From: Rhizophagus irregularis
Lineage: Eukaryota > Glomeromycota > Glomeromycetes > Glomerales > Glomeraceae
Direction: 5' to 3'
DNA length: 64,000 nucleotides
Assembly: GCF_026210795.1 (NCBI RefSeq)
Contig: NC_089453.1
Location: 250,501 to 314,500, forward strand
In this document: one piece after another, positions 7,416 through 59,059 of the stretch
Layout: each line of letters starts with the position of its first letter
Position numbering within the stretch: position 1 is the first letter of the stretch
Position numbers and translations under genes: made by a program
The notes under the pieces: model-generated
What the model saw: the letters and a program-made list of their open reading frames with translations, nothing else
Database searches by the model: none
What the model was told of the DNA's origin: nothing

Positions 7416-8292
7416 TAGAGCTTTGAATGGGTCAGGTTAGGTCAGGTAATTGATCTGACCTGATCTGATTGATTTTTTCAGGTTAGGCAAAAAGTTGACC
7501 TGAAACAGGTTGAATCAGATATCCGATCTGACCTGATCTGACCTGTTGCAAAAGTCAAAAATATCTTTGTCAATTAAAAATTTCTTTTTTTTAGATGTTT
7601 ATTCAGCTGAAATGCTGAATTTCTTGATTTAAATATTAGAATATATATCTACTATTGAGATATATTATTGTTTTTAAAATTTTTATTTTTTTTTTAATTT
7701 AAAAACATTAATTAACATTCTTTATTATCTTCTTTTTATAGACGGTTTACTTTTTACTTTTAGGATTACAGACTTCAAACCAGATTTTTAAAATTTTTAA
7801 TTTATTAATTTAGTTAAATGTATAATTTATTTAGCAAATTTCGCAAATTTATTAATATTAATGCATTATTACAACAATTATATTATATAAACTTTAAAAC
7901 TATTTAACTCTACTACAACAGAGTAAATTCTTAACTATTATTATTTATAAATTTCTATATAAAAAATGATTACATATTAATATTTAAATAATTAATCAAA
8001 ATAAATAATTTATATTAATTTTATTACCTGGTCGAAATCATTTCTTTCGGCATTAATACTTTTCGTCAAAAGTTTGTCATCATCATCACGTGATTCGTCA
8101 AACATTCGGCCAATTACAAAAATTAAAAAAAAATTAGCATAAATCAACTGGTCGATTTTTGGTCAATTTTTGGTTGAGTTGTAACATAAAAAAATCCATA
8201 AATCGACCAATACTATTTTTTATTGATTTTTATTAACAATAACAATCAACTTAAAACTTTTTTGACGATTTTTAACCGATTTTTTATAATTA

Positions 8293-9759
8293 CATATGGG
8301 CCAATTCTTGGAATCTAATTTTTTTACACAAAAATAATTTTATTAAAGTAAATATAAATTATCATTTATATAAGAATAATAAATTTATACTAGATAATGC
8401 AAAAAAAACTAATTAATTATATAATTTTTAATTTTTTTTAATATAAGATATCATTAAAATTTAAAAGATCAAATATAACTCTCATGACAAAATCATTGAT
8501 AATTCTTTGTAGAAATAAGCTATACAAATAAATTTACATTCATTTGAAAGAAAAAATCGAGACCTATCTAATGAATCTAAAATCAAGTGAATTGAATTAC
8601 TAGTTGTTCAGTAGTCACGTTCAGTATATTTATTGAATTTTATCTAAATTTGATCATTAATTACTTCACATGTAGTGATTCAATTTGAATGATCTTTGCT
8701 CCCTAAGGTGATGCCAACTTTTATCTTTAAAATAAATTTAAAATAATTCGTTTAATATATGTAGATGTTTAGGAATCATCAATTATATTATTAATATAAA
8801 ATTTTATAAGTTTGATAAAATCTGATATAAAAAAATTTATTAAATACCTGTAGATGCAAGCTACACGAATGAAATTATATTCATTTGAAAGAGAAAATTG
8901 AGGTCTATCTAATAAGCCCAAAATCGAATGAATTGAATCACTGGATTGTGAATAATTACATCTAATATATTTATTTTTGATTTTTAAATTTGATTTGACT
9001 TTGATCGTTAATTACGCCTCATCCAGTGATCCAATTTTCCTGATCTTTGATTCTTACGATAGAGCAAATTCTCAGCTTTCAAATGAATGTAAAATGATGA
9101 CGTTAGCATATCTCCAGGAATAATAATGCACGATTTTGTTACCTGCATAAAGTCCAATCTGAAAATTTTATTTCTTACCAAAAAATGCTTTCATAAGAGA
9201 ATCCCAAATTCTTTTACTTTATTTAAAAGATTTTATTTGCCATTTAAGGATTTTAGTGGAATAAATCTAATAAAATAATTTTAAAGATAAAAAACAAATA
9301 TATAATTAGTTATTTTGAAAAAAAAAGAATATCTTATTATTCATTTTACAACTATTTTACATCATAATTATTTTTTATTTGCATGTATTTTTTACAAAAA
9401 AAAACAATAAATTAAAGCTAAAAATTATGAAAAAATATGTCTTATCTATGTATATAAAATATTAAGTTTTTTCTTTTACTTACCACTTAAAAATAACTGC
9501 TATATTTGCTTATAAACTTTTTTGTCATATTTAATAAAAGTGAATAGAAAAATGATGGAAAAGTGATGGGAAAAAGAAGTGGTTATTACCGTTATTTTTG
9601 AATATTGATTAAAAAAATTTTTTTTATTTTTTATTAAATCTGAGTTACGTAAATATGTAACACATATTTAATTTAGATTTGTGTAATGTTAATCTTACTA
9701 AAATATTAAATTTTTATAAAAATCTTAATTTAGACTAATTCCAAAAATCGGCACATATG
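8293..9759. mobile_element. ~1.47-kb MITE-like element with CATATG inverted ends
   Basis: CATATGGGCCAATTCTTGG (from 8293) is mirrored by CCAAAAATCGGCACATATG (ending near 9759), an inverted match with a few mismatches. The interior contains two diverged direct copies of a block about 350 bp long, starting near 8518 and 8868. Each includes TTCATTTGAAAG followed by GACCTATCTAAT or a close variant, and an inverted partner (CTTTCAAATGAATGTAAA) lies near 9080. No coding capacity. The target duplication is unclear. Confidence 0.45.
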
Positions 9760-9889
9760 AATTAATATCAATAACGGCAGATCAGTGTACTAAGCCGCAG
9801 TCATAGTAATTAGTTGATTTATTACCAAATTTAGACTATTAAATAATAGTTTAAACTATTTAACTATTTTGAAAAAAAAAAATTTTTTT

Positions 9890-10200
9890 TTCTTTTTCTA
9901 AACGAAACAGTTTTAAACGTTTCAAAAATTTTTTTTTCAATTTTTTATTGGACCATTAGTTAATTAATGTTCTGATTTTTAATATTTTTATTTTTTTACA
10001 AAACATTTCGTTAAATTTTTTTTATTGGAATGTTAATTAACATTCCATTTTTTTAATATTTTTTGCAAAACGTTCTTTAACGTTTCACTTGATTTTTTTT
10101 TACATTTTCAATCAGAACATCAGTTAACGTTCTGATTTTTTAATTTTTTTATAAAACTGTTATTTTAAAGAAAACGTTTTCTAACATTTTTTTTATACTT
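9890..10200. repeat. Series of short palindromes leading into the micro-exon array
   Basis: Successive inverted repeats such as GGAATGTTAATTAACATTCC (around 10027) and GAACATCAGTTAACGTTC (around 10116) are separated by T-rich tracts. They resemble the hairpins inside the introns of the arrays at 10209-13230 and 57763-58530, so this may be decayed array sequence whose exon blocks are lost. Confidence 0.5.
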
Positions 10201-10208
10201 TTATATAG

Positions 10209-11850
10209 GAAATCGGTTCCAGCATGGATACCGTTTCCCAGGTAAAGTTTTGAAAGATCTTCAAAACTTTCTTTAAAAAAAAATGTTTTATACTAAAAAA
10301 CATTTTTTTTATTATATTTTTTATGTAGGAAATCAGTTCTGGCGTGGATACTGATATTTCAGGTAAAGTTTTGAAAAAAAATTTTGAAACTTTCTTTAAT
10401 AAAACGTTTTAATAAAACATTTTTTTTTTATTTTTATATAGGAAATTGGCTCCAACGTGGACGCCAATATTCCAATTAAGTTTCAAAACTAAAGTTTTGA
10501 AACTTTTTTAAAAACATTTTTTAATAAAAAAAAATGTTTTGTTTTATTTTTTTTATATAGGAATTCGGCTCCAGCGTGAACGCCGATATTCCAGTTAAGT
10601 TTCAAAATAAAATGTTTTGAAACTTCTTTAAAATGTTTTTTAATAAAAAAAAATGTTAATTTTTATTTTTTTTATATAGGAATTCGGCTTCAGCGTGGAC
10701 GTTAATATTTCAGTTAAGTTTTAAAACTTTCAAAACTTTCTTAAAAAACGTTTTTTAATAAAAAAAAATGTTTTTTTTTCATTTTTATTTAGGAATTCAG
10801 TTCTGGCGTGAACGCCGATATTCCAGGTAAGTTTCGAAACTAAAGGTTTAAAACTTTAATAAAACATTTTTTAATAAAAAAAAACATTTTGTTTGATTTT
10901 TTTATATAGGAACATAGATGCCGATATTCCAGTTAAGTTTCGAAACAAAATATTTTGAAATTTCTTTAAATCATTTTTTAATAAAAAAAAACGTTAATTT
11001 TTATTTTTGTATAGGAAATTAGCTCTAACGTGGATGCCAATATTCCAGGTAAGTTTCAAAACTAAAGTTTTAAAACTTTAATAAAACGTTTTTTAATAAA
11101 AAAACATTTTATTTTATTTTTTTATATAGAAATTCAGCTCCAGCGTAGACACCGATATTCCAGTTAAGTTTGAAACAAAATATTTCAAAACTTCTTTAAA
11201 ACGTTTTTTAATAAAAAATAATGTTAATTTTTATTTTTGTATAGGAAATCAGTTCTAACGTGAACACCGATATTCCAGGTAAGTTTCAAAATTAAAGTTT
11301 CAAAACTTCAATAAAACATTTTTTAATAAAAAAAATGTTTTGTTTTATTTTTTTATATAGGAATTCAGCTCCAGCATGGACGCCGATATTCCAGTTAAGT
11401 TTTGAAAGTTTCAAAACTTTCTTAAAAAACGTTTTTTAATAAAAAAAAACATTTTTTTTTTATTTTTATTTAGGAATTCGGTTCCGACGTGAATACCGAT
11501 ATTTCAGGTAAGTTTCAAAATAAATGTTTCAAAACTTCTTTAAAAACGTTTTTTTAAATTAAAAAATGTTTTTTTTTATTTTATTGTATAGGAATTTGGC
11601 TCTAACGTGGACGCCGATATTCCAAATAAGTTTTGAACCATTTTCAAAATTTCTTTAAAAAAAACGTTTTTAACATTTTTTTTATATTTAATTGTAGGGC
11701 CATCAGTTCCAGCTTGGATACTGAAATTCAAGATAAGTTTCAAAAAATTTCAAAACTTTAATAAAAAATGTTAATTTTTAACATTTTTATTTATTTTTTG
11801 TAGAGATCGGTTCTGACGTAGATACCAAAATCCCAAAGATAAATTTTGAA
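10209..11850 (+). repeat. Micro-exon array, part A: 15 tandem exon/intron-like units
   Basis: Fifteen units with a period of 105-120 bp. Each has a T-rich tract ending in AG, a GC-rich block of 33-34 nt, then a donor-like GTAAGTTT or GTTAAGTTT. Blocks start at 10209, 10329, 10442, 10561, 10680, 10793, 10910, 11015, 11130, 11245, 11361, 11474, 11592, 11698 and 11804. The consensus block starts GAATTCGGCTCCAGCGTGGA and ends CGCCGATATTCCAG, about 59% GC in DNA that is otherwise mostly A/T. Donors alternate: units 6, 8, 10 and 12 have AGGTAAG, and units 5, 7, 9 and 11 have AGTTAAG, so the array grew by dimers. Unit 7 has lost part of its block, and units 3, 13, 14 and 15 have damaged donors. Introns carry a hairpin next to the donor (TTTCAAAAC..GTTTTGAAA) and another before the acceptor (AAACGTTTTTTAAT..AAAAAACATTT). 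Whether it is spliced is unknown. Confidence 0.75.
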
Positions 11851-11915
11851 GAATCTTTTCAAAACTATCTTTTTTTTAAAGGAACGATTTACTAATCGTT
11901 TTTTTTTTTTTGTAG

Positions 11916-12573
11916 GTACAGAAAAAACCAAGATTCGTAAGTATATACGAATCTTGGTTTTGTTTCTTTTTTTGTTTTTTTTTTAATATTAATGAATGGT
12001 TACTAATAACCGTTTTTTTCACTTTTTTTAGGTTTGAGTGAGCTTCTGAAAATCGGAAAACCAAAATTTGTAAGTATATATGAATCTTAGTTTTGTTTTT
12101 TTTATTTTTAATATTACAAACGGTTACTAATAACCGTTCTCTTTTTTTTATAGGTTGGGTTAAAGATGTAGTATGTAATTGATAATTATTACCTTGTGTT
12201 GTAATAGTAAGGGTTGCAACTTATTACTACTTTTAAAGTTAAAGTGTTGTAATATTACAATACTTATGATTATTTAAAAATTTTCTTTTTGAAAAATAAA
12301 AATTACAAAAATAAGTTTTTATAGAACAAATATCATCATAAAAAGAAATGATAATATATATTTGTATAATTGAAAATAATTATAACACATTATAATAATT
12401 ACAATACTAGTAGTAATTATAATACTATATAATAATTATAATATTGTGTTGTAATTACAACAAAAGTGTTGTATATATGTTGTAATAATTGCAACTTTAC
12501 AACCTTCTAAAAATAATTACATATCACATCTTTAGGTTAGGTGGATTTCTGACGAATAGATGAACCAAGATTC
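11916..12573 (+). repeat. Micro-exon array, part B: three blocks with donor hairpins
   Basis: Blocks at 11916-11936, 12032-12069 and 12154-12573; the last is split by the MITE at 12161-12534 and is 38 nt without it. The second and third blocks align (GTTTGAGTGAGCTTCTGAAA and GTTAGGTGGATTTCTGACGA). All end in CCAAGATTC or CCAAAATTT and are followed by GTAAGTA. The donor lies in the loop of a palindrome (CCAAGATTCGTA..TACGAATCTTGG). Before the acceptors of the second and third blocks is a second palindrome, AACGGTTACTAATAACCGTT or a near copy; the first block has a shorter one, AACGATTTACTAATCGTT. The two-hairpin plan matches part A although the sequences differ. Confidence 0.65.
12161..12534. 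mobile_element. 374-bp hAT-type MITE inserted in a micro-exon
   Basis: The inverted ends are TAAAGATGTAGTATGTAATT (from 12161) and AATTACATATCACATCTTTA (ending 12534). They are flanked by GGTTGGGT (12153-12160) and GGTTAGGT (12535-12542), an 8-bp target duplication with one mismatch. The interior is a long imperfect palindrome rich in TTGTAATAATTACAA-like blocks, with no coding capacity. It interrupts a block of array part B. Confidence 0.75.
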
Positions 12574-12649
12574 GTAAGTACAAATATGAATCTTGGTTTT
12601 TTTATTTTTATTATATTTTATTTGATTTTTTTTTTCTTCTATTTTGTAG

Positions 12650-13230
12650 GTTTCAGCTTCACGTTGGATATATAGGTGAGTTTCAAAGTAAAGGAATCGA
12701 AACTTTTTAAAATAAATTATTTTTTTTTTAAATTTTTTTTAATTTATTTTTCTATTTTGTAGGTTTCAGCTTTCGGTTCTTAAGCGTTGGATATATGAGT
12801 AAATTTCGAAATAAAACTCCGAAACTTTTTTAAAATAAATTATTTTTTTAAAAATTTTTTTTATTTTAATTTATTTTTCTATTTTGTAGATTTCAGCTTT
12901 CGGTTCATAGGCTTTGAATATACGGGTGAGTTTTGAAGTAAAACTTTAAAAATTTTTTTAAAAATTTTTTTTTTAATTTTATCTTAATTTTTTTTTCTAT
13001 TCTATAGATTTTAGCTTTTGGTTCTTGGGCTCTGGATGAACGTAGATAATTTTGGATAAGTGGATGATGGTAGACGATAGTGGATGATGGATGGTGGATG
13101 ATAGATAGTAGATGATATATGTGGACAATGGTTGACGATAGTTGACAATGTTTGACAATAGATAGTGAATGGTAAATGATAAATGGTAAATGGTAAGTGA
13201 TGGATGATGGATGGTAGGTGTAAATAGACA
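12650..13230 (+). repeat. Micro-exon array, part C and terminal exon-like block with GGATGATGG repeats
   Basis: Blocks at 12650-12675 (26 nt), 12763-12798 (36 nt), 12890-12925 (36 nt) and a terminal one from 13008. They share TTTCAGCTTTCGGTTCTTAG-like sequence after TATTTTGTAG or TCTATAG acceptors and end at GTGAGTTT or GTAAATTT donors. The terminal block reads ILAFGSWALDERR then a stop in one frame. It runs into about 150 bp of imperfect short repeats (GTGGATGATGG, GATGGTAG). This looks like the 3' end of a gene-like structure starting at or before 10209. Confidence 0.6.
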
Positions 13231-13564
13231 GATACTGTAGATATTTGATATTTAATATAATAATTTTTAATGTGTAATTTTAATAAAGTAAAAAAATAAA
13301 ATATAATTTATTGATTGTTATTGCAAAATTAAAATGAACTAAATACATAAAAATCATTAACAATAAGACAAAATTTTACCAATATTCAGCAATTTGAATT
13401 TGGACGAATGTCTAGTAAAAGGTTGACGAATAGTTTATTTCCAATTTTTTAATGAATTTTTGCCAATTTGTGATTGCCAAGTAGCAGGCGAACTGTGCAA
13501 ATCGTTCATAATAATTTTGACAATTTTTTTGGCAATGATCAGCCAAAATTAGATCAACTTTCAT

Positions 13565-16500
13565 CTAATATTCGTCAATTTGAAATTTGGATGAAATGGA
13601 CTATTCTGACCAGTGATTGCCTTATTGATCCAGTTTTTAAGATACATGCAGGCCCGAATTGATTTTCGATTTAAACTAGAGCGCCTTTTTGTTATCAAAT
13701 CGGTTCCACTAGAGAATATTCTTTCAACAGGCACACTTGATCTTGCAATTAAAAATTATAAGAAAAGTTAAAAAAAAAAATTAAAAAAAATTACTTTTAC
13801 CTGGAATCACTAAGAAGTCTTGTGCCATATTTGCAAGATGTGGAAAAGTGGCTTCATGCGCCTATGTACAATATTTTTAATTAATATATATGCAGTTGTT
13901 TGAAATTATATTAAAGGGTTACTTACTTTCCACCATTGTAGTGGATCTGTTTTAAATGTAACAATAGCTTTTCGAAGATATTCTTCTAGTTCATCTTCTT
14001 CATGGTTATTGTCTAAATTAAAAATACCAAAAAAATCGTTCTGATTTTCAAATTCATCAACAAAATTAGGACATAAATTATTTTTGTAATTCTTGTTATA
14101 TGTATCTGTAACAATTTTTCGTGCAGCATCAATGTATTCTTATTCCCAATCCTGCTGTTAATAGTACTTTAATTTTACTCGTGAATCAAGTACTTAAAAA
14201 TTTATAAGAGTTAATAAATAATATTAAGTAGTTTTTAGTAAAAAAAAATAAAAATAATTACTTGTAGCGATTGGATAAACATAGGAATCATCTGTCTTGG
14301 CATAATATACTTTAAGTTTTTCGTATCCTTTTCTTAAAGCATTTCGCACTTCTAAATTAGGGCAGAAGTTACGATCATTTGTGTCTAGCAGTTTTTCAAG
14401 ATGATCCAACAAAACATTATAGACAGGAATAGATGAGGAGAGTGTAATGAAATTTGATTTAGACATATGCTCAGTAGCTTTGTGAAAAATCTAAAATTAC
14501 AAATTATAATAAATAATTAGTATAATTTAATAAATAAGCGATAAAATAAATGAAAAAATTTACCTCAAATATGCGATATAATTCTTTAATTATTTCCCAT
14601 TCATCTGTAAAAATAGTAAATTCTTCTAATTCACGACCAATAGCTGTAATTTCTTCAAGGGGCTATAAAAAATTTAATAAGTTAATATACTATTTATTTA
14701 AATATAGTTAATTATAACATTATACTTACTTCCCGAAATTCAAAGGCACGTTGTAACATTAGATAGGTAGAATTCCAGCGCGTCTTAACATCCAAAATAA
14801 GATTTAATGTTTTAAGATTTGGATTAAGATTGCATTGACGGGAAAATCAATCACGATGCTGTGGTGAGGATCGTATTTTTACAATAAGTTTCCTTAACTA
14901 AATAATTTATAAGTATGAAGTGTTATTAATTACAATATGAATGTATTATTTTTTTATTTACTTCTTACCCTGGGTATTACTTTATTTGTGCTAATCGTTC
15001 CACTTGAAAGATTTTCTAAAATAAAATCTTCATCTTGCACTTCTCCAGCTTTAATATGTTTCAATATATATTTCTTGAACAGCAAGATTCATTATATGTG
15101 CAACACACCTCACATGATTTCGTTTATGGTGAAAATCTATACGATTTTTATTGCATACTTTTTCAAACTCTTTAAAAAAAGTATCATTATTTGCTGCATT
15201 ATCCGTCGTTATTGCTAGAATCTAATTAAATATATTGAATTATTAGTATCATAATTATTTTATATTTTTATAATAAAAAAATACCAACTTTTGTGAGAAT
15301 TTTTTTATTTTAAAGACATTTTGTGAATACATTTGCTAGATTTTTACCCGAATGAGGATCAGAAAGATCAACAAAATCAACAAGAATATCCTTTAAATCC
15401 CAATCAGTATCAATATAGTGACAGGTTATTTCAAGAAAGCTAATAATATTTGGAGAGATCCACCTGTCTAATGCAAAGCTTATTTTTCCTGGAGAATTCT
15501 TTAATTAAAGTAGTTATTTTAGTAATTAATTAATAATTTAGTAATTTATAGATTTTTTTAATTTTTACTAACCTGCAGTAAATTTTGCATAGTTGTTTGA
15601 TAATTTTTAAAAGTATCTAAAACATCATTTCTAACTGTATCTGTCGATGGAATTAATGCTATTGGGTTACATAGTTTAATTAGATCATGAAATTCATCAG
15701 ATTCAACAATGGTAAATGGTTGATCGTCTGCAACAACCTATAAAGCAAGTTTATCCCAAAAATTTTTATTAGTAAACGTCTACAATAAATTAAATAAGTT
15801 AGTTACTTATATCTAAAAACTTGAAAATATTTATTATATTTACATACCATTTGTGGATTACCCTCTTGTAAAAAATTTTTCATAAATTCTGCCTGTTTTA
15901 CCATGGAGGAATCGAATTTATCTGGATGTGATTTAAGATGATGTTTTAAATTTCCCGTTGAACCTCCATTATTCATATTATATTTACCACCTCTATTAAT
16001 ATTTTATATTTAAGTTAAAATAAAATTTTATTTAGCAGGTGTAATTACGCTTATAAAATAAAAAAAATAATTAATTAATAATTATCTACCCACAATATCG
16101 CCATTTCGCCCATATTATTCCTTTATTATCTTTAAATTTATTAAAATGGTTCCATACGATACTTGTTTTTTATTAGTTTCATCTAATGTACTTAGAACTG
16201 AATTTGAAGTATCGTCTAAAGCTCCGAATGGTTCAGGCTAAACCGGGGAACCGATCTGAAACTGGCTCAAAATTCAGTTCAGTTCAGTTCGGATATTAGA
16301 ACTGAAAAACTGGCGGTTCGGTTCAGTTTAATCCGATTTTTTATAAAAATGCGAAAAATCGAATAGCTGGCCATTTAGTGATCGTATAAAGTCAAGTTAT
16401 ATATCATTGGATTCATCTCGACGAGACGTGTCAAATGGTGGTAAGATCATGTCTCTAGCATTGATAAATCACACGTTAACCCACGCTAAATGATTTATAA

Positions 16501-17772: not shown

Positions 17773-19540
17773 GCCAAAACTGATTGTTTCAGTATTCTTT
17801 TTCGATTTTACATGTAAAAGCGCTAGAATAATTAGTTCTGGCAGTTTTCCTTTTGATTTTACATGTAATAATGCCAGAATAATTAGTTCTAGTAGTTTTT
17901 TTTTGATTTTACATGTAAAAACTAGAGGTTGGAACTGGTTTTAAAAGTCTTAACCGGTTAATAACTAGTTAACCAAACCTTTAACTGGTTAATTAACTGG
18001 TTAAAACTCAATCCTAGTCAGCATTAAAATTTGGCCAGGATTAGCATCAAATATATTTTTAATCCTGGCCAAAATTAAGCCAGACCAAAACTCTAACTAA
18101 TCGAAATGAAACTCTAGCTGAAGACGAAATTCAGGCCAAAAATTGTCTGGCTGGACTAGATAAATGCAGGCTGAAATACATAGTGCCGTTGGTATCTTAC
18201 CTGGTGGCCAAACTTTTATCTAAAATCCCGTGGTTTATAATTTTGGTAAATTTGGCCAGAATTACAAATATTTTTGGCATTTTAACCAGTTAATTTAACC
18301 GATTAATTTAACCGGTTAAAAATTGTTTTTTAACCAGTTAACAAATGTTTTAACCAGTTAACCGTTTTAACCAGTTAATTAACCAGTTAAGCTTAACTGA
18401 TTCCAACCTCTAGTAAAAATACTGAAACTGATAGTTTTGGTATTTATTTTTAATTTTACATGTAAAAACGCTGGAATAATTAGTTCTAGCAGTTTTCTTT
18501 TTGATTTTACATGTAAAAATGCCAAACCTGATAGTTTCAGCATTTTTTTTCAATTTTACATGTAAAAGCGCCAGAATAATTAGTTCCAGCAGTTTTCTTT
18601 TTGATTTTACATGTAAAAATGCCAAAACTGATAGTTTCAGCATTTTTTTTTGATTTTATATGTAAAAGCGCCAGAATAATTAGTTCCAGCAGTTTTCTTT
18701 TTAATTTTACATGTAAAAACGCTAGAATAATTAGTTCTAGCAGTTTTTTTTTGATTTTACATGTAAAAATGCCAAAACTGATAGTTTTAGCATTTTTTTG
18801 ATTTTACATATAAAAATGCCAGAATAATTAATTCCAGTGGTTTTCTTTTTGATTTTACATGTAAAAACGCTAAAACTAATAGTTTTGGCATTTTTTTTTA
18901 ATTTTACATGTAAAAACGCTGGAATAATTAGTTCTGGCATTTTTCTTTTTGATTTTACATGTAAAAATGCTGAAACTAATAGTTTCAGCACTTTGTTCAA
19001 TTGTACATGTAAAAATGCCAGAATCATTAGTTCTGGCATTTTTCTTTTTGATTTTACATGTAAAAACACTGAAACTGATAGTTTTAGCATTTTTTTCGAT
19101 TGTACATGTAAAAACGCTGAAATCATTAGTTCTGGATTTTTCTTTTTGATTTTACATGTAAAAAACACAGAAACTGATAGTTTTGGCAGTTTTTTTTGAT
19201 TTTACATGTAAAAACGCTGGAATAATTAGTTCTAGCAGTTTTCTTTTTGTTTTTACATATAAAAATGCCAAAACTGATAGTTTCAGCATTTTTTTTGATT
19301 TTACATGTAAAAGCGTCAGAATAATTAGTTCTGGCATTTTTCCTTTTGATTTTACATGTAAAAATGCCAAAACTGATAGTTTCAGCATTTTTATCGATTG
19401 TACATGTAAAAATGCTGGAATCATTAGTGCTGGCATTTTTCTTTTTGATTTTATATGTAAAAAATACCAAAACTATCAGTTTCAGTATTTTTTTCAACTT
19501 TACATGTAAAAACGCTAGAATCATTATTAGTTTCAGTGGT
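17773..19540. repeat. Satellite of ~50-bp palindromic units centred on TTTTACATGTAAAA
   Basis: About 25 units, each centred on the perfect 14-bp palindrome TTTTACATGTAAAA or a near copy (for example TTGTACATGTAAAA near 19000). The stretches between centres are inverted repeats of two alternating types: GCCAGAATAATTAGTTCTGG and GCCAAAACTGATAGTTTCAG. The type A/type B alternation gives a higher-order period near 98-100 bp. Open frames on both strands here (FTCKNA.., LHVKSKKMLKL..) are by-products of the repeat. It is interrupted by the MITE at 17923-18412. Confidence 0.85.
17923..18412. mobile_element. 490-bp hAT-type MITE inserted in the palindromic satellite
   Basis: The ends TAGAGGTTGGAACTGGTTTT (17923) and TTCCAACCTCTA (to 18412) are inverted. 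The flanks are GTAAAAAC (17915-17922) and GTAAAAAT (18413-18420), an 8-bp duplication with one mismatch. Many subterminal copies of TTAACCGGTTAA and TTAACCAGTTAA occur at both ends. No coding capacity. Confidence 0.85.
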
Positions 19541-29080: not shown

Positions 29081-30764
29081 AAAAAAAAAATTTATTTTTT
29101 ATTTTTTATTTCGAAACAGTAAATAATTACCAATAAAAGATTTTTATATATATATTTATTAATACCCCTGCGTTTTATTATGTTTCGTTTTAAATAATAA
29201 TAATAATAATATATACTTTGTAAACTTCTTAATCTTTAATCGATTTTCTCAGCAAATGCATAAGTTCATAAGTTACAGTTACACAATTTCAAGTTCCAAA
29301 TCAAGATTTATAACAACAACAACAATAACACCGGTTCATCTACCAAAAAATACTAAACAATAGAAAATTGAAAAATGAGGTTTTTTTTTTTTATGTAACA
29401 AATTTTTTTTTGAAAATGGAAATTTTTTTTCATATTTGAAATTTGAAATCAATGATTGGTGTTTTAATAGTGTAACATGGTCAATTTAAGGATTCCATTC
29501 TCGTCCACAATGGGTGACCGTTCACAGATGAGTCATTGTGAGAATGGCGCGAGAACTTTTGATATAATGATCATCGCTTATTATTTTTAAAAATATCGTC
29601 GTGGCTCAACATGTGGATTTATTAAAATTTGGCGCTATTTTCTTCTAAAATTAGTTTACTTTCTCTTTGGATGTTCCATTTTAAAATCATAATTCCGGTT
29701 AAAATGCAAATAATAAAAAAAAAACAACGGTAATCTATGACTATTATTCCCATTTAGAGAATACAGTTGACGGAATTTCCACTTTTGGGACACAGAAGGA
29801 AAAAAAAATTATTTTTTTTTTTATTAAAAAAAAAAGTATTAAAAAGTATTAAAAAGTGTTCAAAGAATTTCTATTATTAAATACCTTTATTCGGACAACA
29901 ATTTAAAAAGAAACAACATACACATAAAGCATTGAGTACAAACAAGGTAATTTTTTTTAAAAAGGACAATATTAAAAAAAAAAAATGTTACAAAAATGAT
30001 ACATTCTCATTTTTAGCTAATAAATTAAAATATACATTAAAAAATATACATTAAAATTATTTACTATTTAAAATTAAAAAACTTCCATTGTTTCCCCTTT
30101 CTTTATGAATAATAAAAATATTACTTTTTTATTATCGGGTGTTTCATTTTACTAGTATATTAAAAGTTTACTACCCAATTTTTTTTCTATAAATAATATT
30201 AAATAACCATTTGGGTTCAACAATCTCTTCCGAATAGGGAAATCACTGCCCCTTTTAACTTCAATAGCAAAATATATCGAGATATTAGAGATAAGAAGTC
30301 TATTATAATAAATTAAAATAAACTTATTATAAACTTATATAAAACTTATAATAACCTTATAATAGTTTTTTTTTATAAGAACTACTTCGGTAATGTGGGT
30401 AATGTGATAAACTTTAATCATTACTATTAATATAAAAAATTTTTGGCTTTCTTTATTGCCAATTTAAGCAAAGAATGCACTAGTAAATTAATATATAAAC
30501 ACTGTCACTTGGAATTTTTGGATAAAAACGTAAAAGTCATCAGGAAAAAAAAAAAAAAAATTTTTTTTCTATTTCTAAAAAAACCTCTCTTCTCTCTCAC
30601 ACCAAACAAATATAATATATATATTATTTAAAATATATATAAAAAAAAAATTTTTTTTTTTATTTTTTTCCTTATTCTTTTAAAAACAATAAAAAAAAAA
30701 ACTTTAAAGAAGAAAAAATAAAATAAAAATAAAAATAAATTTTTTTTTTTTTTCTAAAAAAAAC

Positions 30765-32201
30765 ATGTCGTTTTATTGCTTCGAGACAAGACAAGACCGT
30801 ACTTTGGCTCCTTATCCACCACCAGAATTTTCTCAACAAATAGAGAAAATGTCACCTACAGAAATAGTGGACCATATAATAAATACAAATATTGACGCAA
30901 TTACTCTTTCAAAGATTGAAAAAGCAATAGCCGTTCCACTTAGACAACTTATTTCTCCAAGAGAAAATAGAAGACGTCGTGCTATTCCTCGTCCTCAAAA
31001 TAATTTTGTACTTTATCGTAGAAATTTTCATGCTGTTATTACAAAACAACAAGGTCATGGTGTTGCTAAAAATTTTAAATTAATATCAAATGAAGCTGCT
31101 AAAAATTGGTCTGAAGAATCAAATGAAATTAAACAATTATATGAATTGATTGCTGATTGTGCTAAAAAAGTTCACGATTGTACTTATCCTCAATATGTTT
31201 ATCAACCAAAACACAAGTCCAATAAAAAAGGTGCTAATGGTACCATTTTTAGAGAAGTGACTGTGGATTCTTGTAGTAAAAAGAATGATAAAAAAGAAAA
31301 AGATATGAAAGAATTATTAAAAGAAAAAGAAGATTTAAAGAGAGATAAAATTACCATGACAAAAAGTTTTGTTGCTTCTACAACTTTCTTATCTGACATG
31401 AATCCGCCCGTATGTATTAAACCCAGACTAGATATATTAGCAAGCGCCGAAGAAGGTAATAAAAAATGGCGCTGGGCTCATTATACTCAAAGTGACCCAC
31501 CAAATAACGTTAGTAGTAACAACCCCAACAATATTAACCCCAACAATAATAATCCTTCCAACGTTAATAATCCCTCTAACGTTAACAACGTTAATAATCC
31601 TTCCAACGTTAATAATCCTTCCAACGTTAATAATCCTTCTAACGTTAATAATCCTTCAAACAATAATAATCCTTCCAACAATATTAACTCCAACAACAAC
31701 TCCAACAATTCCAACATTAACAACAGTAGTAACAACATTAACAATAACATTAACAATTCCAACATTAACAACAACATTAACAACAACATTAACAACAACA
31801 TTAACATCAACGCTAACAGCAACATCAACAGCAACGCTAACAGCAACGCTAACAGTAACATTAACAGCAACGCTAATAGCAACGCTAACAAAACCAACAT
31901 CATCATCAACAACAACAACATCAACAACAACATCATCAATAACAACGACATCAATAACGATAACAGTGATAATAATAATGATAATAATAACGATTACGAA
32001 GACGATAATAATAATCTTATGGAAGATGTAACTCCCATAACATCAAGTCCTCCACCACCTATTCAACCACCACAACCACCACCACTACCACCAACACCAG
32101 CTTTATTATTACCTCCGATAGATATTCCAATATCTTCAAATTTCCTGGCTACATATGATAGAAATATTTGGAATTTGGTCAACGGTTACACACATGTTTA
32201 A
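30765..32201 (+). CDS. MATA_HMG-type HMG-box protein
   Basis: Intact single-exon gene of 478 residues. Residues about 71-157 form a MATA_HMG-like HMG box: RRRAIPRPQNNFVLYRRNFH, then VAKNFKLISNEAAKNWSEES, then EIKQLYELIADCAKKVH. The IPRPxNxFxLYR start is typical of fungal mating-type HMG proteins, which bind DNA in the nucleus. It is followed by a Lys/Glu-rich stretch (about 175-200), an Asn-rich low-complexity region (about 243-400) made of NPSNVNN and NNINSN repeats, an acidic patch, and a Pro-rich patch (about 430-445). Many such genes are known in Glomeromycota, where their role in mating is unproven, so this should not be read as a mating-type locus by itself. No partner homeodomain genes are in the window. 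The upstream 40 bp are almost pure A/T. Confidence 0.92.
   Translation: MSFYCFETRQDRTLAPYPPPEFSQQIEKMSPTEIVDHIINTNIDAITLSKIEKAIAVPLRQLISPRENRRRRAIPRPQNNFVLYRRNFHAVITKQQGHGVAKNFKLISNEAAKNWSEESNEIKQLYELIADCAKKVHDCTYPQYVYQPKHKSNKKGANGTIFREVTVDSCSKKNDKKEKDMKELLKEKEDLKRDKITMTKSFVASTTFLSDMNPPVCIKPRLDILASAEEGNKKWRWAHYTQSDPPNNVSSNNPNNINPNNNNPSNVNNPSNVNNVNNPSNVNNPSNVNNPSNVNNPSNNNNPSNNINSNNNSNNSNINNSSNNINNNINNSNINNNINNNINNNININANSNINSNANSNANSNINSNANSNANKTNIIINNNNINNNIINNNDINNDNSDNNNDNNNDYEDDNNNLMEDVTPITSSPPPPIQPPQPPPLPPTPALLLPPIDIPISSNFLATYDRNIWNLVNGYTHV
31494..31990 (+). repeat. Asn-codon repeat tract inside the HMG-box gene
   Basis: Imperfect trinucleotide and longer repeats (AACGTTAATAATCCTTCC about five times, then AACAACATT and AACAGCAACGCT) encode the Asn-rich region. 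Such tracts are prone to length change. Long antisense and +1 frames here (Leu/Met-rich, Thr-rich) are by-products. Confidence 0.8.
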
Positions 32202-54609: not shown

Positions 54610-57256
54610 ATGGCCAATATTACTCTTAACTGTCTTATTGTTTTAGTAGGAAATTTTAATAATGTTCAATGTAATGCGATACACTAAATGATTACAATTA
54701 GTACAAATCAACTGGTCAGTGATCTTGTAGATGCAATTAGAGGCAAATTGGAGTTAAAAGATGCCTCTTTAAGCCTTTATCAAGTTCATTTTAGGAGTAT
54801 TCAAAAAATGAAAATAGATTCTGCATATCTGATTTCTAAATTTTTTGATTGACAACCTCAGGCAGAATTCTTTTATGTCACTGTATATTTCCATTAATAA
54901 TTCACAGTATTATGTAGCGATATTTTCACAATTTTTATGTATTATAAGCTGGCTTCTGGCAATGTTTTTTATTTCTTAAATAAAGCATATTGTATATTAC
55001 ATTCTTGTCATAAATCTTAAAAAATGTCATATGTAATGATATGAGAGTATATTTACTTCTGACTACTATGCAATATCAGGACTATAAATCTAACATTTTT
55101 ATCTGAACTAGTCTGGCATTCAGGTGATGAATCTTCACAGTTAGGAAGGCGCAATGATTAGACGATTATTGCATTTATGATGCAATATGGCTGATCAGTT
55201 TCTTGTGAAACAGAATAATTTTTCACATATAGTCTACCTCAATATTTTTTTTGTCTTTTAACTCTTGTCCTCATATACTGCACTTTGTGTCATGTCTAAT
55301 TTCTGATCAGTTAACTTTTTTTCTGATATCAAATATATACTCTAATTGTACAGGTAAAAATAATAAAAAAATGCTGAAAAAGAGCTTTTAAGTATTAATT
55401 ATATCTTATTTTGACAGTTTTTTTAGATTATTTGAACAATTCTGATTCCAACTTTTGGTTATATAGTGATTTCTTATAACTAAACCATACTCTTATTATC
55501 ACTTCATCACCTTTCAAAGATCAATGGAATACTCTTGATAGAATATGAAAAAGGCAATTTATACAAGCAGGAAAGGAATTATTAAACTCATCATTAGAGG
55601 AAATTTTTGAGAAGAAGGTGATTTCATTAATTTATTTTGTTATTTCAATAAAAGAGAACTTCTTGACATATGTTACTTATCTTGAAGCAAGCATCATGAA
55701 ACTTTCTGGCTCAAATGATAGTATGGAAAACTCCTTAACATATGTTATTTATCTTGGAGCATCATGAGTCTTCTTGATTCCTACCATTGCATTCCATCTT
55801 ATTTTCAATTTATTAATGTATTGGGAGTAACAAATTGCTAATTATCTACCTTATTTAATAAGGTAAATCTGAAGCATGTCAAGTTTAATTTTTATTCCTT
55901 TTGAAAAAAGGTGATTACTGAACAACTACAGGTAATGCAAAAGAAAATATCAGCCAATTTCTAATTCTATTAATGCATTTTTTCCTAAAAGAAAGTTTTT
56001 ACAATTATCACAATAGTGCCAAGTTCAAAATACATATGATATAGAAACCCTTTTTACATTTAATGAAATCAAGTAAATTTTATGAGAGACAGTTCCGCTT
56101 ACTCTATATTAGCCAGACAGCAGAAGGAACATACTTATCTAGATGTGAAGAAAGAATACCAGATATGAAGGAGAATGAAAAAAATGAAAAGAATGATATA
56201 AGTTCATGTTATTTGGAATCCATGCTCAAGTTCTCATTTATGTCTTTTTATAATCGTTCATCTACAAATGATACATTTTATAGAACAATGAGAAAAAATG
56301 TTTAATGGAGAAAGACCAAAAGAAGAAAACGTTGAAATATATCACAAAATATCACAATAATTGTAAGAATGTTAAATGTAGATTACAAAAAATATATTTT
56401 AATATAAGTTTGATTATTATAGAATTTTACAGATATGGATGAAGAATCAGATGATAGTGAAATTGAAGGCTCATGTAACAGGCTCGATTTTACAGAACTT
56501 GATGAATCTTATTCAGTTTAGCAATAGACTCTGAACAAATGTAAAAGTTAAAATCTGGATGAAAAATTAAGAGAATAATTTATCAGTATACAAAAAAGTT
56601 ACATAAAGAATCATGTTTACATTTTTTTATTATAAATAATACTGACAAAAACGTTAAAGCAATATTTTAAAGGAATAATGGAAAGAGATTTTCTTAACAG
56701 ATTTTTAGAAGAAACCAAAAGTTGAAGCTCCACTTATTAAATTGATTAAAAAATATACTTTTGATAATATAAATAATTGAAAAAAATTTCTCTTACAGCT
56801 ATTTGTATCAGACAAAGAAGAGTTTAATAGAAATTTGCACTATAATCTCAGCTTTATCAATTATGTGTATTGAGAAATACTTTTTTTGTGAGAAGCGGAG
56901 GATAATTTTATTTCAGATCAATCAAAACTGAAAGGTTAGTACCAAAGTAATATATGAAACAGAATAATTGATCCAGCTTTTCATGATATGAAGTTTGAGT
57001 TAATAAGGGGTGAAGGTATGAATTTTGCCTTGAGCAACAGAAAAATAATGGTAAAACAGGTTCTATTTATAAGAAAATAGGAAGAAAGAAAGATGGAATT
57101 TTCAGAATAACAACAGATCATATGAAGATTAGAGTCATAGAAACTGGTTACAAATGAAAAGGATCAAACAGGACAAAATATTTGAAGGACAGTTTAAAGC
57201 TAAATAAAATGCTAAAAGACATGATTATGAATCTTATTTTTGAGAATAATTGCAAT

Positions 57257-58766
57257 TAAGGATGGTGCCGTAATTGGGCAATTGCGGAACATTGCGGATC
57301 CGCAATATTGCGGATTTGCGGATTTCAGAAGTCCAAATATCCGCAAATCCGCAATCCGTAATTAGCCGCAAATCCGCAATTTTTCCGCAATTCCGCAAAT
57401 GATCCGTAATTCCGCAATTAATTACAGAATTGCGGATTATTTGCGGAATTGCGGATTATTTGCGGATTTGTGGATTGCCCGCAAAAAAAAGAATAATTTT
57501 TTAAAATATATGTAATTTTTTTAATTAACTAATAAAGAAACCGATTTCTTCTTATTACTAAAAGTAAAAAAAAATCGGTTTTTCATTAATAAAATCTTTT
57601 AAAAAGGACATTTTATTTTTTATCGGCCGGTTAATTTGACGGTTATTAATGATCCGGATTAGATTATCGGACAGTAGTACAAATCATCTGATAATCTTTT
57701 TTTATCCGGACAACTGAATTGCGTTGCGCAATTTTAAAATACATCGTTCTTTTTCTTTGTAAATTCCGGCCTGGAACTTGGAAATGGAGACGGGTAAGTG
57801 TCTCTAAAGTATTTTTTTGTTTTTTTTATGTAAGAACGTTTATTAACGTTCTTTTTACTTTTTTTGTAGATTCTGGCCAGGAACTTGGAAATGGAGACCG
57901 GTGAGTATTTTAAAGGGGAAGCGGTTTTTTTATTTTTATTTTTATGTAAGAACGTTTATTAACGTTCTTTTACTTTTTTTTTGTAGATTCGCATGGCTTT
58001 GGAAATGGAGACCGGTGAGTATTTTAAAGGGGGAAGCGGGTTTTTTTTATTTTTTATGTAAGAACGTTTATTAACGTTCTTTTACTTTTTTGTAGATTCG
58101 GCCTGGAACTTGGAAATGAAGACCGTAGGTGTTTCTAGAGGGGAAAGCGGGTTTTTTTGGTTTTTATGTAAGAACGTTTATTAACGTTCTTTTACTTTTT
58201 TTGTAGATTCCGGCCTGGAACTTGGAAATGGAGACCGGTAGGTGTTTAGAGGGAAAGCGGGTTTTTTGGTTTTTTATGTAAGAACGTTTATTAACGTTCT
58301 TTTACTTTTTGTAGATTCGGCCTGGAAGCTTGGAAATGGAGACCGGTGAGTATTTTAAAGGGGGGAAGCGGTTTTTTTTTATTTTTTTTATGTAAGAACG
58401 TTTATTAACGTTATTTCACTACTTTTTTTTGTAGATTCGGTCCAGAACTTTGATTAGTAGTATCCCTCAAGTTCGTCATTGTTGTCTGTTGTTTGATTTA
58501 GTTTTTGGCGCAGTTGCGCCATTTCAGAGATTATGGTTTTATTGTTTCTAATAAATAATAAATAAATAAATTTATTAAAAAATTTTTTTTGATTAAATTT
58601 ACATTTATAAAACCAGTTGTTTTTTATTAAATTATCATTAAAGACATTAGAAAAATTTTTAATTATCAGCCAATCAGAATTGCGGAATTGCGGGTTACTA
58701 ACCGCAATTCAACTCCAAAATCTGCAATATTGCGGATTTTGGAAATTATTTGCGGACCCATCCTTA
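57257..58766. mobile_element. 1510-bp hAT-type element carrying a second micro-exon array
   Basis: The inverted ends TAAGGATGG (57257) and CCATCCTTA (to 58766) are flanked by perfect 8-bp target duplications ATTGCAAT (57249-57256 and 58767-58774). Subterminal regions are packed with TTGCGGATT and AATCCGCAA repeats (57270-57480 and 58675-58757), the arrangement that hAT transposases bind. There is no transposase inside. Between the subterminal regions lie a CCGGTT/AACCGG palindromic stretch (57600-57720) and the exon-like array at 57763-58530. Confidence 0.92.
57763..58530 (+). repeat. Second micro-exon array: six blocks plus terminal exon-like block
   Basis: Blocks at 57763-57793, 57870-57900, 57987-58014, 58096-58124, 58207-58237 and 58315-58345 are 31, 31, 28, 29, 31 and 31 nt long, and a terminal block starts at 58435. 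The period is 107-120 bp. The consensus starts ATTCCGGCCTGGAACTTGGA and ends AATGGAGACCG, about 55% GC. Acceptors are TTTTTTGTAG (the first is mutated to TGTAA); donors are GTGAGT, GTAAGT or GTAGGT. Every intron has a perfect hairpin with arms AAGAACGTT and AACGTTCTT and loop TATT about 20 nt before the acceptor; only the last has one mismatch. The block is open in all three frames (IPAWNLEMET, FRPGTWKWRP, SGLELGNGDR). The terminal block is open for 38 codons in one frame. Splicing is not proven. Confidence 0.8.
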
Positions 58767-59059
58767 ATTGCAATATTTTTAAACAGTTTCAAGTTATTGG
58801 AATATTAAATGAAGGAAATCAATTGCAAATGATTATAATAGACACACCAAGAGGGTATATTTTTTATGTTAGATATAAGAAATTTTATGAAGTTAGTGGT
58901 CATTTATTGAAAATATAGCCATTAGACTTTATTATTAAGAAAATTTTACATGCAAAAGCAATAATTGTAAAGATTTTAGACTTGATCAACAATTATAAAT
59001 TAAATAATTGGATGCTTTGCAGTAGAAAGAAATGAAATTACTAAGAAAATTCAAATTTT

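What the first reader, a model, noticed from the sequence alone, without database searches (positions are those of the whole stretch)
10209..13230. Long array of tiny exon-like blocks with alternating splice donors
About 22 GC-rich blocks of roughly 21-38 nt lie between AG acceptors and GT donors, separated by AT-rich introns of about 75-90 nt. The array has three successive sub-families (10209-11850, 11916-12573, 12650-13230) and ends in a longer terminal block, which looks like a gene built by repeated exon duplication and not a plain satellite. In the first sub-family donors alternate between AGGTAAG and AGTTAAG, which would alternate 34-nt and 33-nt exons. I know of no described gene with this plan in such a fungus. 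Tandem-repeat effectors with repeated exons (SP7-like) are a possible parallel, but I see no sequence match.
Basis: partly seen in the sequence, partly recalled or inferred. Interest (0 to 1): 0.9.

Follow-up and report, generated by a model that had tools for sequence, protein, structure and literature searches.

The report
Jumping-DNA array of tiny exons
A mobile DNA element in a root-symbiotic fungus carries a long row of exon-like pieces of about 34 letters, which public gene models join at the predicted splice sites; the row recurs in many copies of the element, but the copies compared show no sign of keeping a protein reading frame.

Summary
In detail: 23 exon-like blocks start at 10209-13008, AG before all 23, GT after most. 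The donor alternation follows a 231-bp dimeric repeat. The array is not a single gene. It is carried by a dispersed inverted-repeat transposon (window 8026-13615, ends CACTGGTC/GACCAGTG), with matching 3-bp flanks in 8 of 10 copies and in an eleventh, a 9.7-kb copy that also holds a Transposase_21-like ORF. I compared 37 arrays; the search saw 173 candidate places. Public gene models join these blocks: OCT59_016530, on a contig of the window contig's length, maps without mismatch to window 11034-12168 as 9 exons, 8 of 8 introns GT-AG, with alternating 33/34-nt exons; two more map equally exactly. Splicing is therefore probable, though no reads were seen. A maintained protein is unlikely: exons are mostly 34 nt, stops are common in two frames, and open chains are no commoner than in permuted ones (10 of 37 against 10.1). 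AG is kept in 404 of 430 units, GT in 315. An unrelated array of the same plan lies at about 57762-58465 in a hAT-like element. Best reading: transposon-borne, spliced micro-exon arrays with little coding constraint.

The parts
8026..13615 (+). Whole transposon copy: 5' end ACCTGGTCGAAATC (decayed CACTGGTCGAAATC), 3' end GGACTATTCTGACCAGTG, flanked by ATT (8023-8025 and 13616-13618)
   Evidence: Ends shared with other copies; 3-bp flanks, with the window's ends set by hand
8298..9756 (.). Other repeat that interrupts the 5' part of the element in this copy
   Evidence: In relatives the pieces matching up to 8292-8297 and from 9757-9799 lie next to or near each other; 8292-9129 is 98% identical to a piece of L046
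10209..11850 (+). Sub-family 1: 15 micro-exon-like blocks, mostly 33-34 nt (one of 22 nt), period about 115 bp, higher-order period 231 bp
11916..12573 (+). Sub-family 2: blocks at 11916, 12032, 12154, 12536; GTAAGT donors at 11937, 12070 and 12574
   Evidence: three of them (11916, 12032, 12154) are exons of the mapped gene model
12650..13040 (+). Sub-family 3: blocks at 12650, 12763, 12890 and the start of the terminal block at 13008
   Evidence: TRF period 127
13008..13615 (+). Terminal block with GGATGATGG-type repeats, then the 3' part shared by other copies
11034..12171 (+). Exon chain matching P0023 (OCT59_016530, 87 aa): 11034-11048, 11130-11162, 11245-11278, 11361-11393, 11474-11507, 11592-11629, 11916-11936, 12032-12069, 12154-12168, then TAG
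   Evidence: Spliced alignment: 8 of 8 introns GT-AG, 0 mismatches; protein
57257..58766 (+). Second, unrelated element (hAT-like: ends TAAGGATGG / CCATCCTTA, 8-bp repeat ATTGCAAT at 57249-57256 and 58767-58774) with an array of about 30-nt blocks at about 57762-58465, period 110 bp

Best explanation
The feature is carried by a terminal-inverted-repeat transposon of Rhizophagus irregularis (ends CACTG..., 3-bp target duplication: CACTA/EnSpm-like). An exon of about 34 nt together with one intron was amplified in tandem inside the element, partly as a 231-bp dimer, and the element spread through the genome; the window copy is a short, non-autonomous one. Shown: the element, its ends, its copies, the array, and exact agreement of three public gene models with GT-AG joining of the blocks. 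Inferred: the array is transcribed and spliced in the cell, with skipping where donors are lost. Also inferred: the open frames in these transcripts are mostly incidental, because a 34-nt exon shifts the frame by one each time, so that one exon is read in three frames in turn (types EIGSSVDTDIP, NRFQRGYRYSR, KSVPAWIPIFQ), and stops are tolerated. I commit to a spliced, mainly non-coding or weakly coding transposon transcript whose array grows and shrinks by unequal exchange; its use to the element, if any, is open.
For: Copies: 107 matches, 173 candidate places of which 40 were scored; 37 arrays compared. Shared 5' part with a sharp outer edge in 27 of 37 (17 in group A, 10 in group B with the window). 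Matching 3-bp flanks in 8 of 10 elements with both ends found, and TTG on both sides of an eleventh, C17:1179265-1189004 (L037 and L050). That copy holds, between its array and its 3' end, a 368-aa ORF on the other strand that matches Transposase_21 (E 1e-6, 28.5 bits against a cut-off of 28.6). End motif CACTGGTCRAAAT: 504 places against 9 for the reversed control; of the 96 listed on contigs 1-5, 26 adjacent pairs under 15 kb converge and 2 diverge. Splicing: 30 database proteins at E up to 0.1 (28 below 1e-5), 29 R. irregularis and 1 R. diaphanus. P0023 maps exactly to the window (8 of 8 introns); P0014 to L033 (17 of 17, 0 mismatches), P0028 to L042 (9 of 9, 0 mismatches), P0019 to L022 (13 of 13, about 4 mismatches). 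The window model leaves out two blocks without donors (11698, 11806) and uses an unforeseen GTTTTG donor, which looks to me like read evidence. The annotation that I take to lie behind the OCT59 models (link inferred from assembly size and contig lengths) used Illumina reads and Nanopore refinement (PMC10234402, passages). P0007 and P0009 share a contig length and differ by YGKNQNS alone, which resembles block 11916 in another frame (YRKNQDS, by eye). No kept frame: exon lengths mod 3 = 83, 173 and 38 for 0, 1 and 2 (294 exons); stops in 29, 109 and 104 exons by frame; open chains 10 of 37 against 10.1 permuted and 10.9 pooled. No Pfam domain in 8 of the 54 proteins, the only ones tried.
Against: No RNA reads were seen; gene models are indirect evidence, and the paper's read support was not checked for this gene. 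P0014 reads through one intron as a 154-nt exon. Donor GT is lost in 115 of 430 units, and acceptor AG is as well kept in units without a donor (111 of 115) as in those with one (293 of 315), so constraint on inclusion of each exon is not shown. Branch-site-like YTRAY is only slightly commoner than in shuffles in family 1 introns (184 of 246 against 163) and CTRAY is depleted (6 against 27). Ten of 37 arrays share little or no 5' part. Frame 0 has far fewer stops than the others (29 of 294); I read this as a matter of which codons a transition can turn into a stop, by inspection only. The Transposase_21-like ORF could be a nested insertion; 1179321-1183000 of that copy was not seen.
Confidence: 0.72

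Rival explanations
1. A functional protein-coding micro-exon gene family: alternative joining of 33-38-nt exons, each read in any frame, makes many related small proteins, perhaps symbiosis effectors.
For: Many annotated products in several strains and annotation series; isoform-like pairs; some arrays have long open chains (157 aa in L026, 124 aa in L042, 114 aa in L022).
Against: Open chains are no commoner than in permuted exons and stops are frequent in two of three frames; gene finders select open frames, so annotated products are expected anyway; no Pfam domain in the 8 tried; the window model starts at an ATG inside a block.
Confidence: 0.15
2. A plain transposon-internal satellite: the AG/GT borders come from one captured exon and are inherited passively; the gene models are annotation artefacts and little splicing occurs.
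For: Donors drift (315 of 430 intact), G at donor +1 is among the least kept G/C positions (0.58), and many intron interior positions are as well kept as the borders.
Against: Exact GT-AG models with skipping and an unforeseen donor; acceptor AG kept in 404 of 430; three sub-families and a second unrelated element show the same border plan.
Confidence: 0.13
3. An array of palindromic DNA sites, for example transposase-binding subterminal repeats or cruciform sites; the splice-like borders are linkers between hairpins.
For: The block is an imperfect palindrome and the intron holds another; pairs 20/33 and 13/41 form more often than independence predicts (377 against 263; 312 against 226), as do 48/75 and 58/65 in the intron stem.
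Against: Most stem pairs show no excess; G-T mismatches (586) are not commoner than A-C (757) in the block stem, as expected from C-to-T decay on both strands and not from RNA pairing; it does not explain the gene models.
Confidence: 0.08

Closest known systems
Micro-exon genes (MEGs) of schistosomes
   Same: Many very small exons in a row; products that differ by included exons
   Different: MEG exons are described as symmetrical and all MEG products as having a signal peptide (PMC4350168, passages); here exons are mostly 34 nt and cycle the frame, sit in a transposon, and no kept frame was found
CACTA/EnSpm (CMC) DNA transposons of R. irregularis, including Plavaka
   Same: Ends CACTG..., 3-bp flanking duplication of no fixed sequence, Transposase_21-like ORF in one 9.7-kb copy; Plavaka, counted in this superfamily, is reported as particularly prevalent in DAOM197198 (PMC11075540, passages)
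   Different: Internal array of micro-exon-like blocks, which I know from no described CACTA element (recalled)
SP7-like effectors of R. irregularis
   Same: Imperfect repeats in a fungal protein family with scattered paralogues
   Different: SP7 genes are described with a signal peptide, hydrophilic repeats and a conserved intron before the first repeat (PMC11333574, passages); here every repeat is its own exon and no signal peptide is evident by eye; no sequence comparison was made

Membership tests
CACTA/EnSpm-like TIR transposon | Terminal inverted repeats beginning CACTA/CACTG (definition recalled) | tested here: met
   CACTGGTC(A/G)AAATC at 5' ends and GACCAGTG at 3' ends
CACTA/EnSpm-like TIR transposon | Target-site duplication of 2-3 bp without fixed sequence (recalled) | tested here: met
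   8 of 10 elements with both ends: ATG, GGA, CTA, ATA, AAA, CCA, CTC, ATT; L029 and L042 do not match; an eleventh has TTG
CACTA/EnSpm-like TIR transposon | EnSpm-type transposase in a related, longer element | tested here: inconclusive
   Transposase_21-like ORF inside the 9.7-kb copy C17:1179265-1189004, 0.1 bit below the curated cut-off; 4 of 36 Transposase_21 places listed on contigs 1-5 lie within 10 kb inside a facing end motif, random mean 0.89, p = 0.011, with approximate lengths for contigs 2 and 3 and a cut list
Plavaka | Plavaka transposase (PF18759) linked to these ends | tested here: inconclusive
   2 of 26 places listed on contigs 1-5, random mean 0.68, p = 0.15
Schistosome-type micro-exon gene | Coding region mostly of small symmetrical (multiple-of-3) exons | tested here: not met
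   83 of 294 exons are multiples of 3; the modal length is 34 (149 of 294)
Schistosome-type micro-exon gene | Signal peptide / secreted product | not tested
   No predictor on hand; none evident by eye
Schistosome-type micro-exon gene | Alternative splicing of micro-exons | tested here: inconclusive
   P0007/P0009 differ by 7 residues and share a contig length; no reads seen
SP7-like effector family | Family signature and the conserved intron before the first repeat | not tested
   SP7 sequences were not fetched

The most novel reading that the evidence does not exclude
Unrelated DNA transposons of this fungus have independently acquired micro-exon arrays with full splice signals, and these act as a mobile, combinatorial generator: skipping and unequal exchange of 34-nt exons, whose consensus is open in three frames, produce strain- and isoform-specific RNAs and small proteins from one repeated sequence.
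Probability: 0.2. Interest if true: 0.9.

Novelty: new variant of a known kind. Interest (0 to 1): 0.62.

Why it matters
If splicing is confirmed, it shows transposons spreading ready-made micro-exon cassettes, a route by which orphan genes and isoforms in arbuscular mycorrhizal fungi could arise in bulk. It also warns that some of the uncharacterised proteins annotated in R. irregularis may be transposon transcripts whose open frames are incidental. The system would be a natural test bed for how a spliceosome handles chains of 34-nt exons.

Tried and rejected
Rfam: 0 matches in the window at gathering thresholds. RNA-level hairpin selection on the block: not supported. Maintained reading frame: not supported. 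Plavaka as partner transposase: 2 of 26 listed places on contigs 1-5 near a facing end motif; KDZ gave 23 places, compared by eye only. Pfam scans of 16 open stretches from the fetched loci: Transposase_21 in 2 (L039, over the cut-off but upstream of the array, with no 5' end found there; L037, just below it), RNase H in 2 (L041, and L042 inside an element without matching flanks), PIF1 helicase in L029, a kinase in L033, nothing in 10; other open stretches were not scanned. Branch-site enrichment in family 1 introns: weak; in family 2 a TTAAC- or TTAAT-type site within a palindrome precedes the acceptor in the 15 introns that my pattern caught, but the pattern was written for that family. P0028 against L043 and P0019 against L038 were wrong pairings and gave no fit. 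Literature, seen as listings unless passages are cited: R. irregularis with microexon (1 paper), SP7 and splicing terms (2), arbuscular mycorrhizal with micro-exon (3), microexon with effector, fungi and secreted (14), R. irregularis with CACTA (11), with long-read, splicing and TE terms (5), with assembly and isoform terms (1), Glomeromycotina with repeat and intron terms (183 papers holding 5 of 6 terms, 12 listed): none of the listings names such arrays. Genome-wide count of the 3'ss-block-5'ss pattern: not completed.

Full report
Setting. The window lies at 250501-314500 of contig C25 (3,600,274 bp) of a 146.7-Mb genome in 32 contigs. Size, contig number and later protein names fit Rhizophagus irregularis DAOM197198, whose near-complete assembly of 146,773,001 bp is described in PMC10234402 (outline, passages and section 21 seen).

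The observation. The array is there: 15 blocks with a period of about 115 bp, then four blocks of a second type and four of a third, the last running into a terminal block. AG precedes all 23. Most are followed by GTAAGT, GTAAAG, GTTAAG or GTGAGT; 4 of 15 sub-family 1 blocks have no GT at that place. The alternation of AGGTAAG and AGTTAAG goes with a 231-bp dimer and needs no separate mechanism.

It recurs. A search with 10430-11660 gave 107 matches at 173 candidate places, 40 of them scored. I worked with 37 arrays, including the window. Flanks compared all against all show a shared 5' part that ends sharply, in two groups: 17 copies with the edge about 450-500 bp before the first block, and 10 with the edge mostly at 400-500 bp but up to 700-900 bp in four (the window, with its insertion, further out); the other 10 share little or no 5' part (group A alignment of 16 copies). 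The copies begin CACTGGTC(A/G)AAATC and end GACCAGTG. Ten had both ends in the fetched stretch, the window's being set by hand; 8 of 10 carry the same three bases on both sides, L029 and L042 do not. The motif CACTGGTCRAAAT has 504 places in the genome against 9 for the reversed control; among the 96 listed on contigs 1-5, 26 adjacent pairs converge within 15 kb and 2 diverge. This is a DNA transposon, CACTA/EnSpm-like by its ends (family definition recalled). The window copy runs from 8026 to 13615 and is split by another repeat at about 8298-9756. No ORF of more than 62 aa from a start codon lies in it.

A longer copy. L037 holds an array and a 5' end; the 3' end of the same type lies at C17:1179265. 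The bases before the 5' end and after the 3' end are both TTG, so this is one element of 9.74 kb. Between array and 3' end, on the opposite strand, is a 368-aa ORF that matches Transposase_21 with E 1e-6, 28.5 bits against a cut-off of 28.6. A nested insertion cannot be excluded, and part of the copy was not seen. Transposase_21 genes are common in the genome (155 matches, list cut), and 4 of 36 on contigs 1-5 lie inside a facing end motif within 10 kb (random mean 0.89, p = 0.011). An EnSpm-type partner is thus likely but not proven.

It is joined in gene models. A protein search with the joined exons of one array (L026) returned 30 proteins at E up to 0.1, 29 from R. irregularis and 1 from R. 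diaphanus (sequences). P0023 is OCT59_016530; its longest contig has the length of the window's own contig. A spliced alignment places its 87 residues on the window without a mismatch: exons of 15, 33, 34, 33, 34, 38, 21, 38 and 15 nt, eight introns, all GT-AG, stop at 12169. Fifteen of the 16 borders are those of the block pattern. The exception is block 11592, whose usual donor is decayed; the model uses GTTTTG a few bases further on, and skips 11698 and 11806, which also lack donors. P0014 fits L033 with 18 exons and 17 of 17 GT-AG introns, P0028 fits L042 with 9 of 9, both without mismatch, and P0019 fits L022 with 13 of 13 and about 4 mismatches; one P0014 exon of 154 nt reads through an intron. 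The aligner charges more for other introns, so the GT-AG share alone is not evidence; the absence of mismatches is. I take the OCT59 models to come from the annotation of PMC10234402 (inferred from assembly size and contig lengths); that annotation used BRAKER2 with Illumina reads and was refined with Nanopore cDNA through PASA. I did not see reads for this gene.

It is probably not a maintained protein. Of 294 exons with both borders, 83, 173 and 38 have lengths of 0, 1 and 2 mod 3, and 29, 109 and 104 hold a stop in the three frames. Ten of 37 chains have a fully open frame, against 10.1 on permuting exon order and 10.9 on drawing from the pool. The lower count in frame 0 fits the fact that its consensus has no codon that one transition turns into a stop (by inspection). 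A 34-nt exon moves the frame by one, so the same exon appears in the annotated proteins as three peptides. The eight proteins scanned, of 54 found, have no Pfam domain.

Borders. Over 430 units with both regions aligned, AG is present in 404; GT, in either of two registers, in 315. Among G and C columns the acceptor G is the best kept (0.95), whereas G at donor +1 is among the worst (0.58). AG is as well kept in units without GT (111 of 115) as in units with it (293 of 315), which speaks against exon-by-exon selection.

A second case in the same window. At about 57762-58465 lies an unrelated array (period 110 bp) in an element with ends TAAGGATGG / CCATCCTTA and an 8-bp repeat ATTGCAAT, hAT-like by recalled criteria. 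The same 3' end is seen in L048 and L049. The search gave 75 matches and 138 candidate places, 40 scored, and 24 related database proteins at E up to 0.1. Relatives of this array lie inside convergent CACTGGTC pairs at 2 of 8 places on contigs 1-5. Further clusters of unrelated blocks were seen in L030, L034 and L045. The plan thus recurs in unrelated sequences, which favours real splicing signals over one inherited accident.

Conclusion. Around them is a transposon family, public databases already hold gene models of them as uncharacterised proteins, and coding looks incidental. The searches named under Tried and rejected found no paper describing these arrays; the held library is open-access only.

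Noticed in passing
window 57257-58766: hAT-like element with its own micro-exon-like array; its introns hold a palindrome AAGAACGTTTATTAACGTTCTT just before the T-tract and AG.
   Followed up: partly
L045:8696-9788 (+), L034:61-806 (+), L030:600-1100 (+): Further unrelated clusters of 30-50-nt blocks between NYAG and GTAAGT/GTGAGT, with AACGTT-type palindromes that carry CTAA-like sequence before the T-tract (L045 and L034 places converted by hand from the reversed stretches).
   Followed up: partly
L047, between its 5' end (3569) and the first block, and other group A copies: A C/T-rich tract, then GTAAATG or GTAAACA about 100-135 bp before the first block in 9 of 16 group A copies by pattern: promoter- and first-donor-like.
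   Followed up: no
window 18443-19526: Tandem array (period 100 and 298 bp) of TTTTACATGTAAAA-type palindromes; no GTAAGT in its consensus as printed.
   Followed up: no
window 30708-32198: 497-codon open stretch whose middle (31517-31958) is made of AAC/AAT-type repeats.
   Followed up: no
window 8298-9756: Repeat inserted in the transposon; 98% identical over 838 bp to a piece of L046, so a recent move or duplication.
   Followed up: no
array units, all 37 arrays: Differences between units are mostly C/T and G/A, marked at CpG sites such as TTTCGAAA, which fits decay of methylated cytosine.
   Followed up: no
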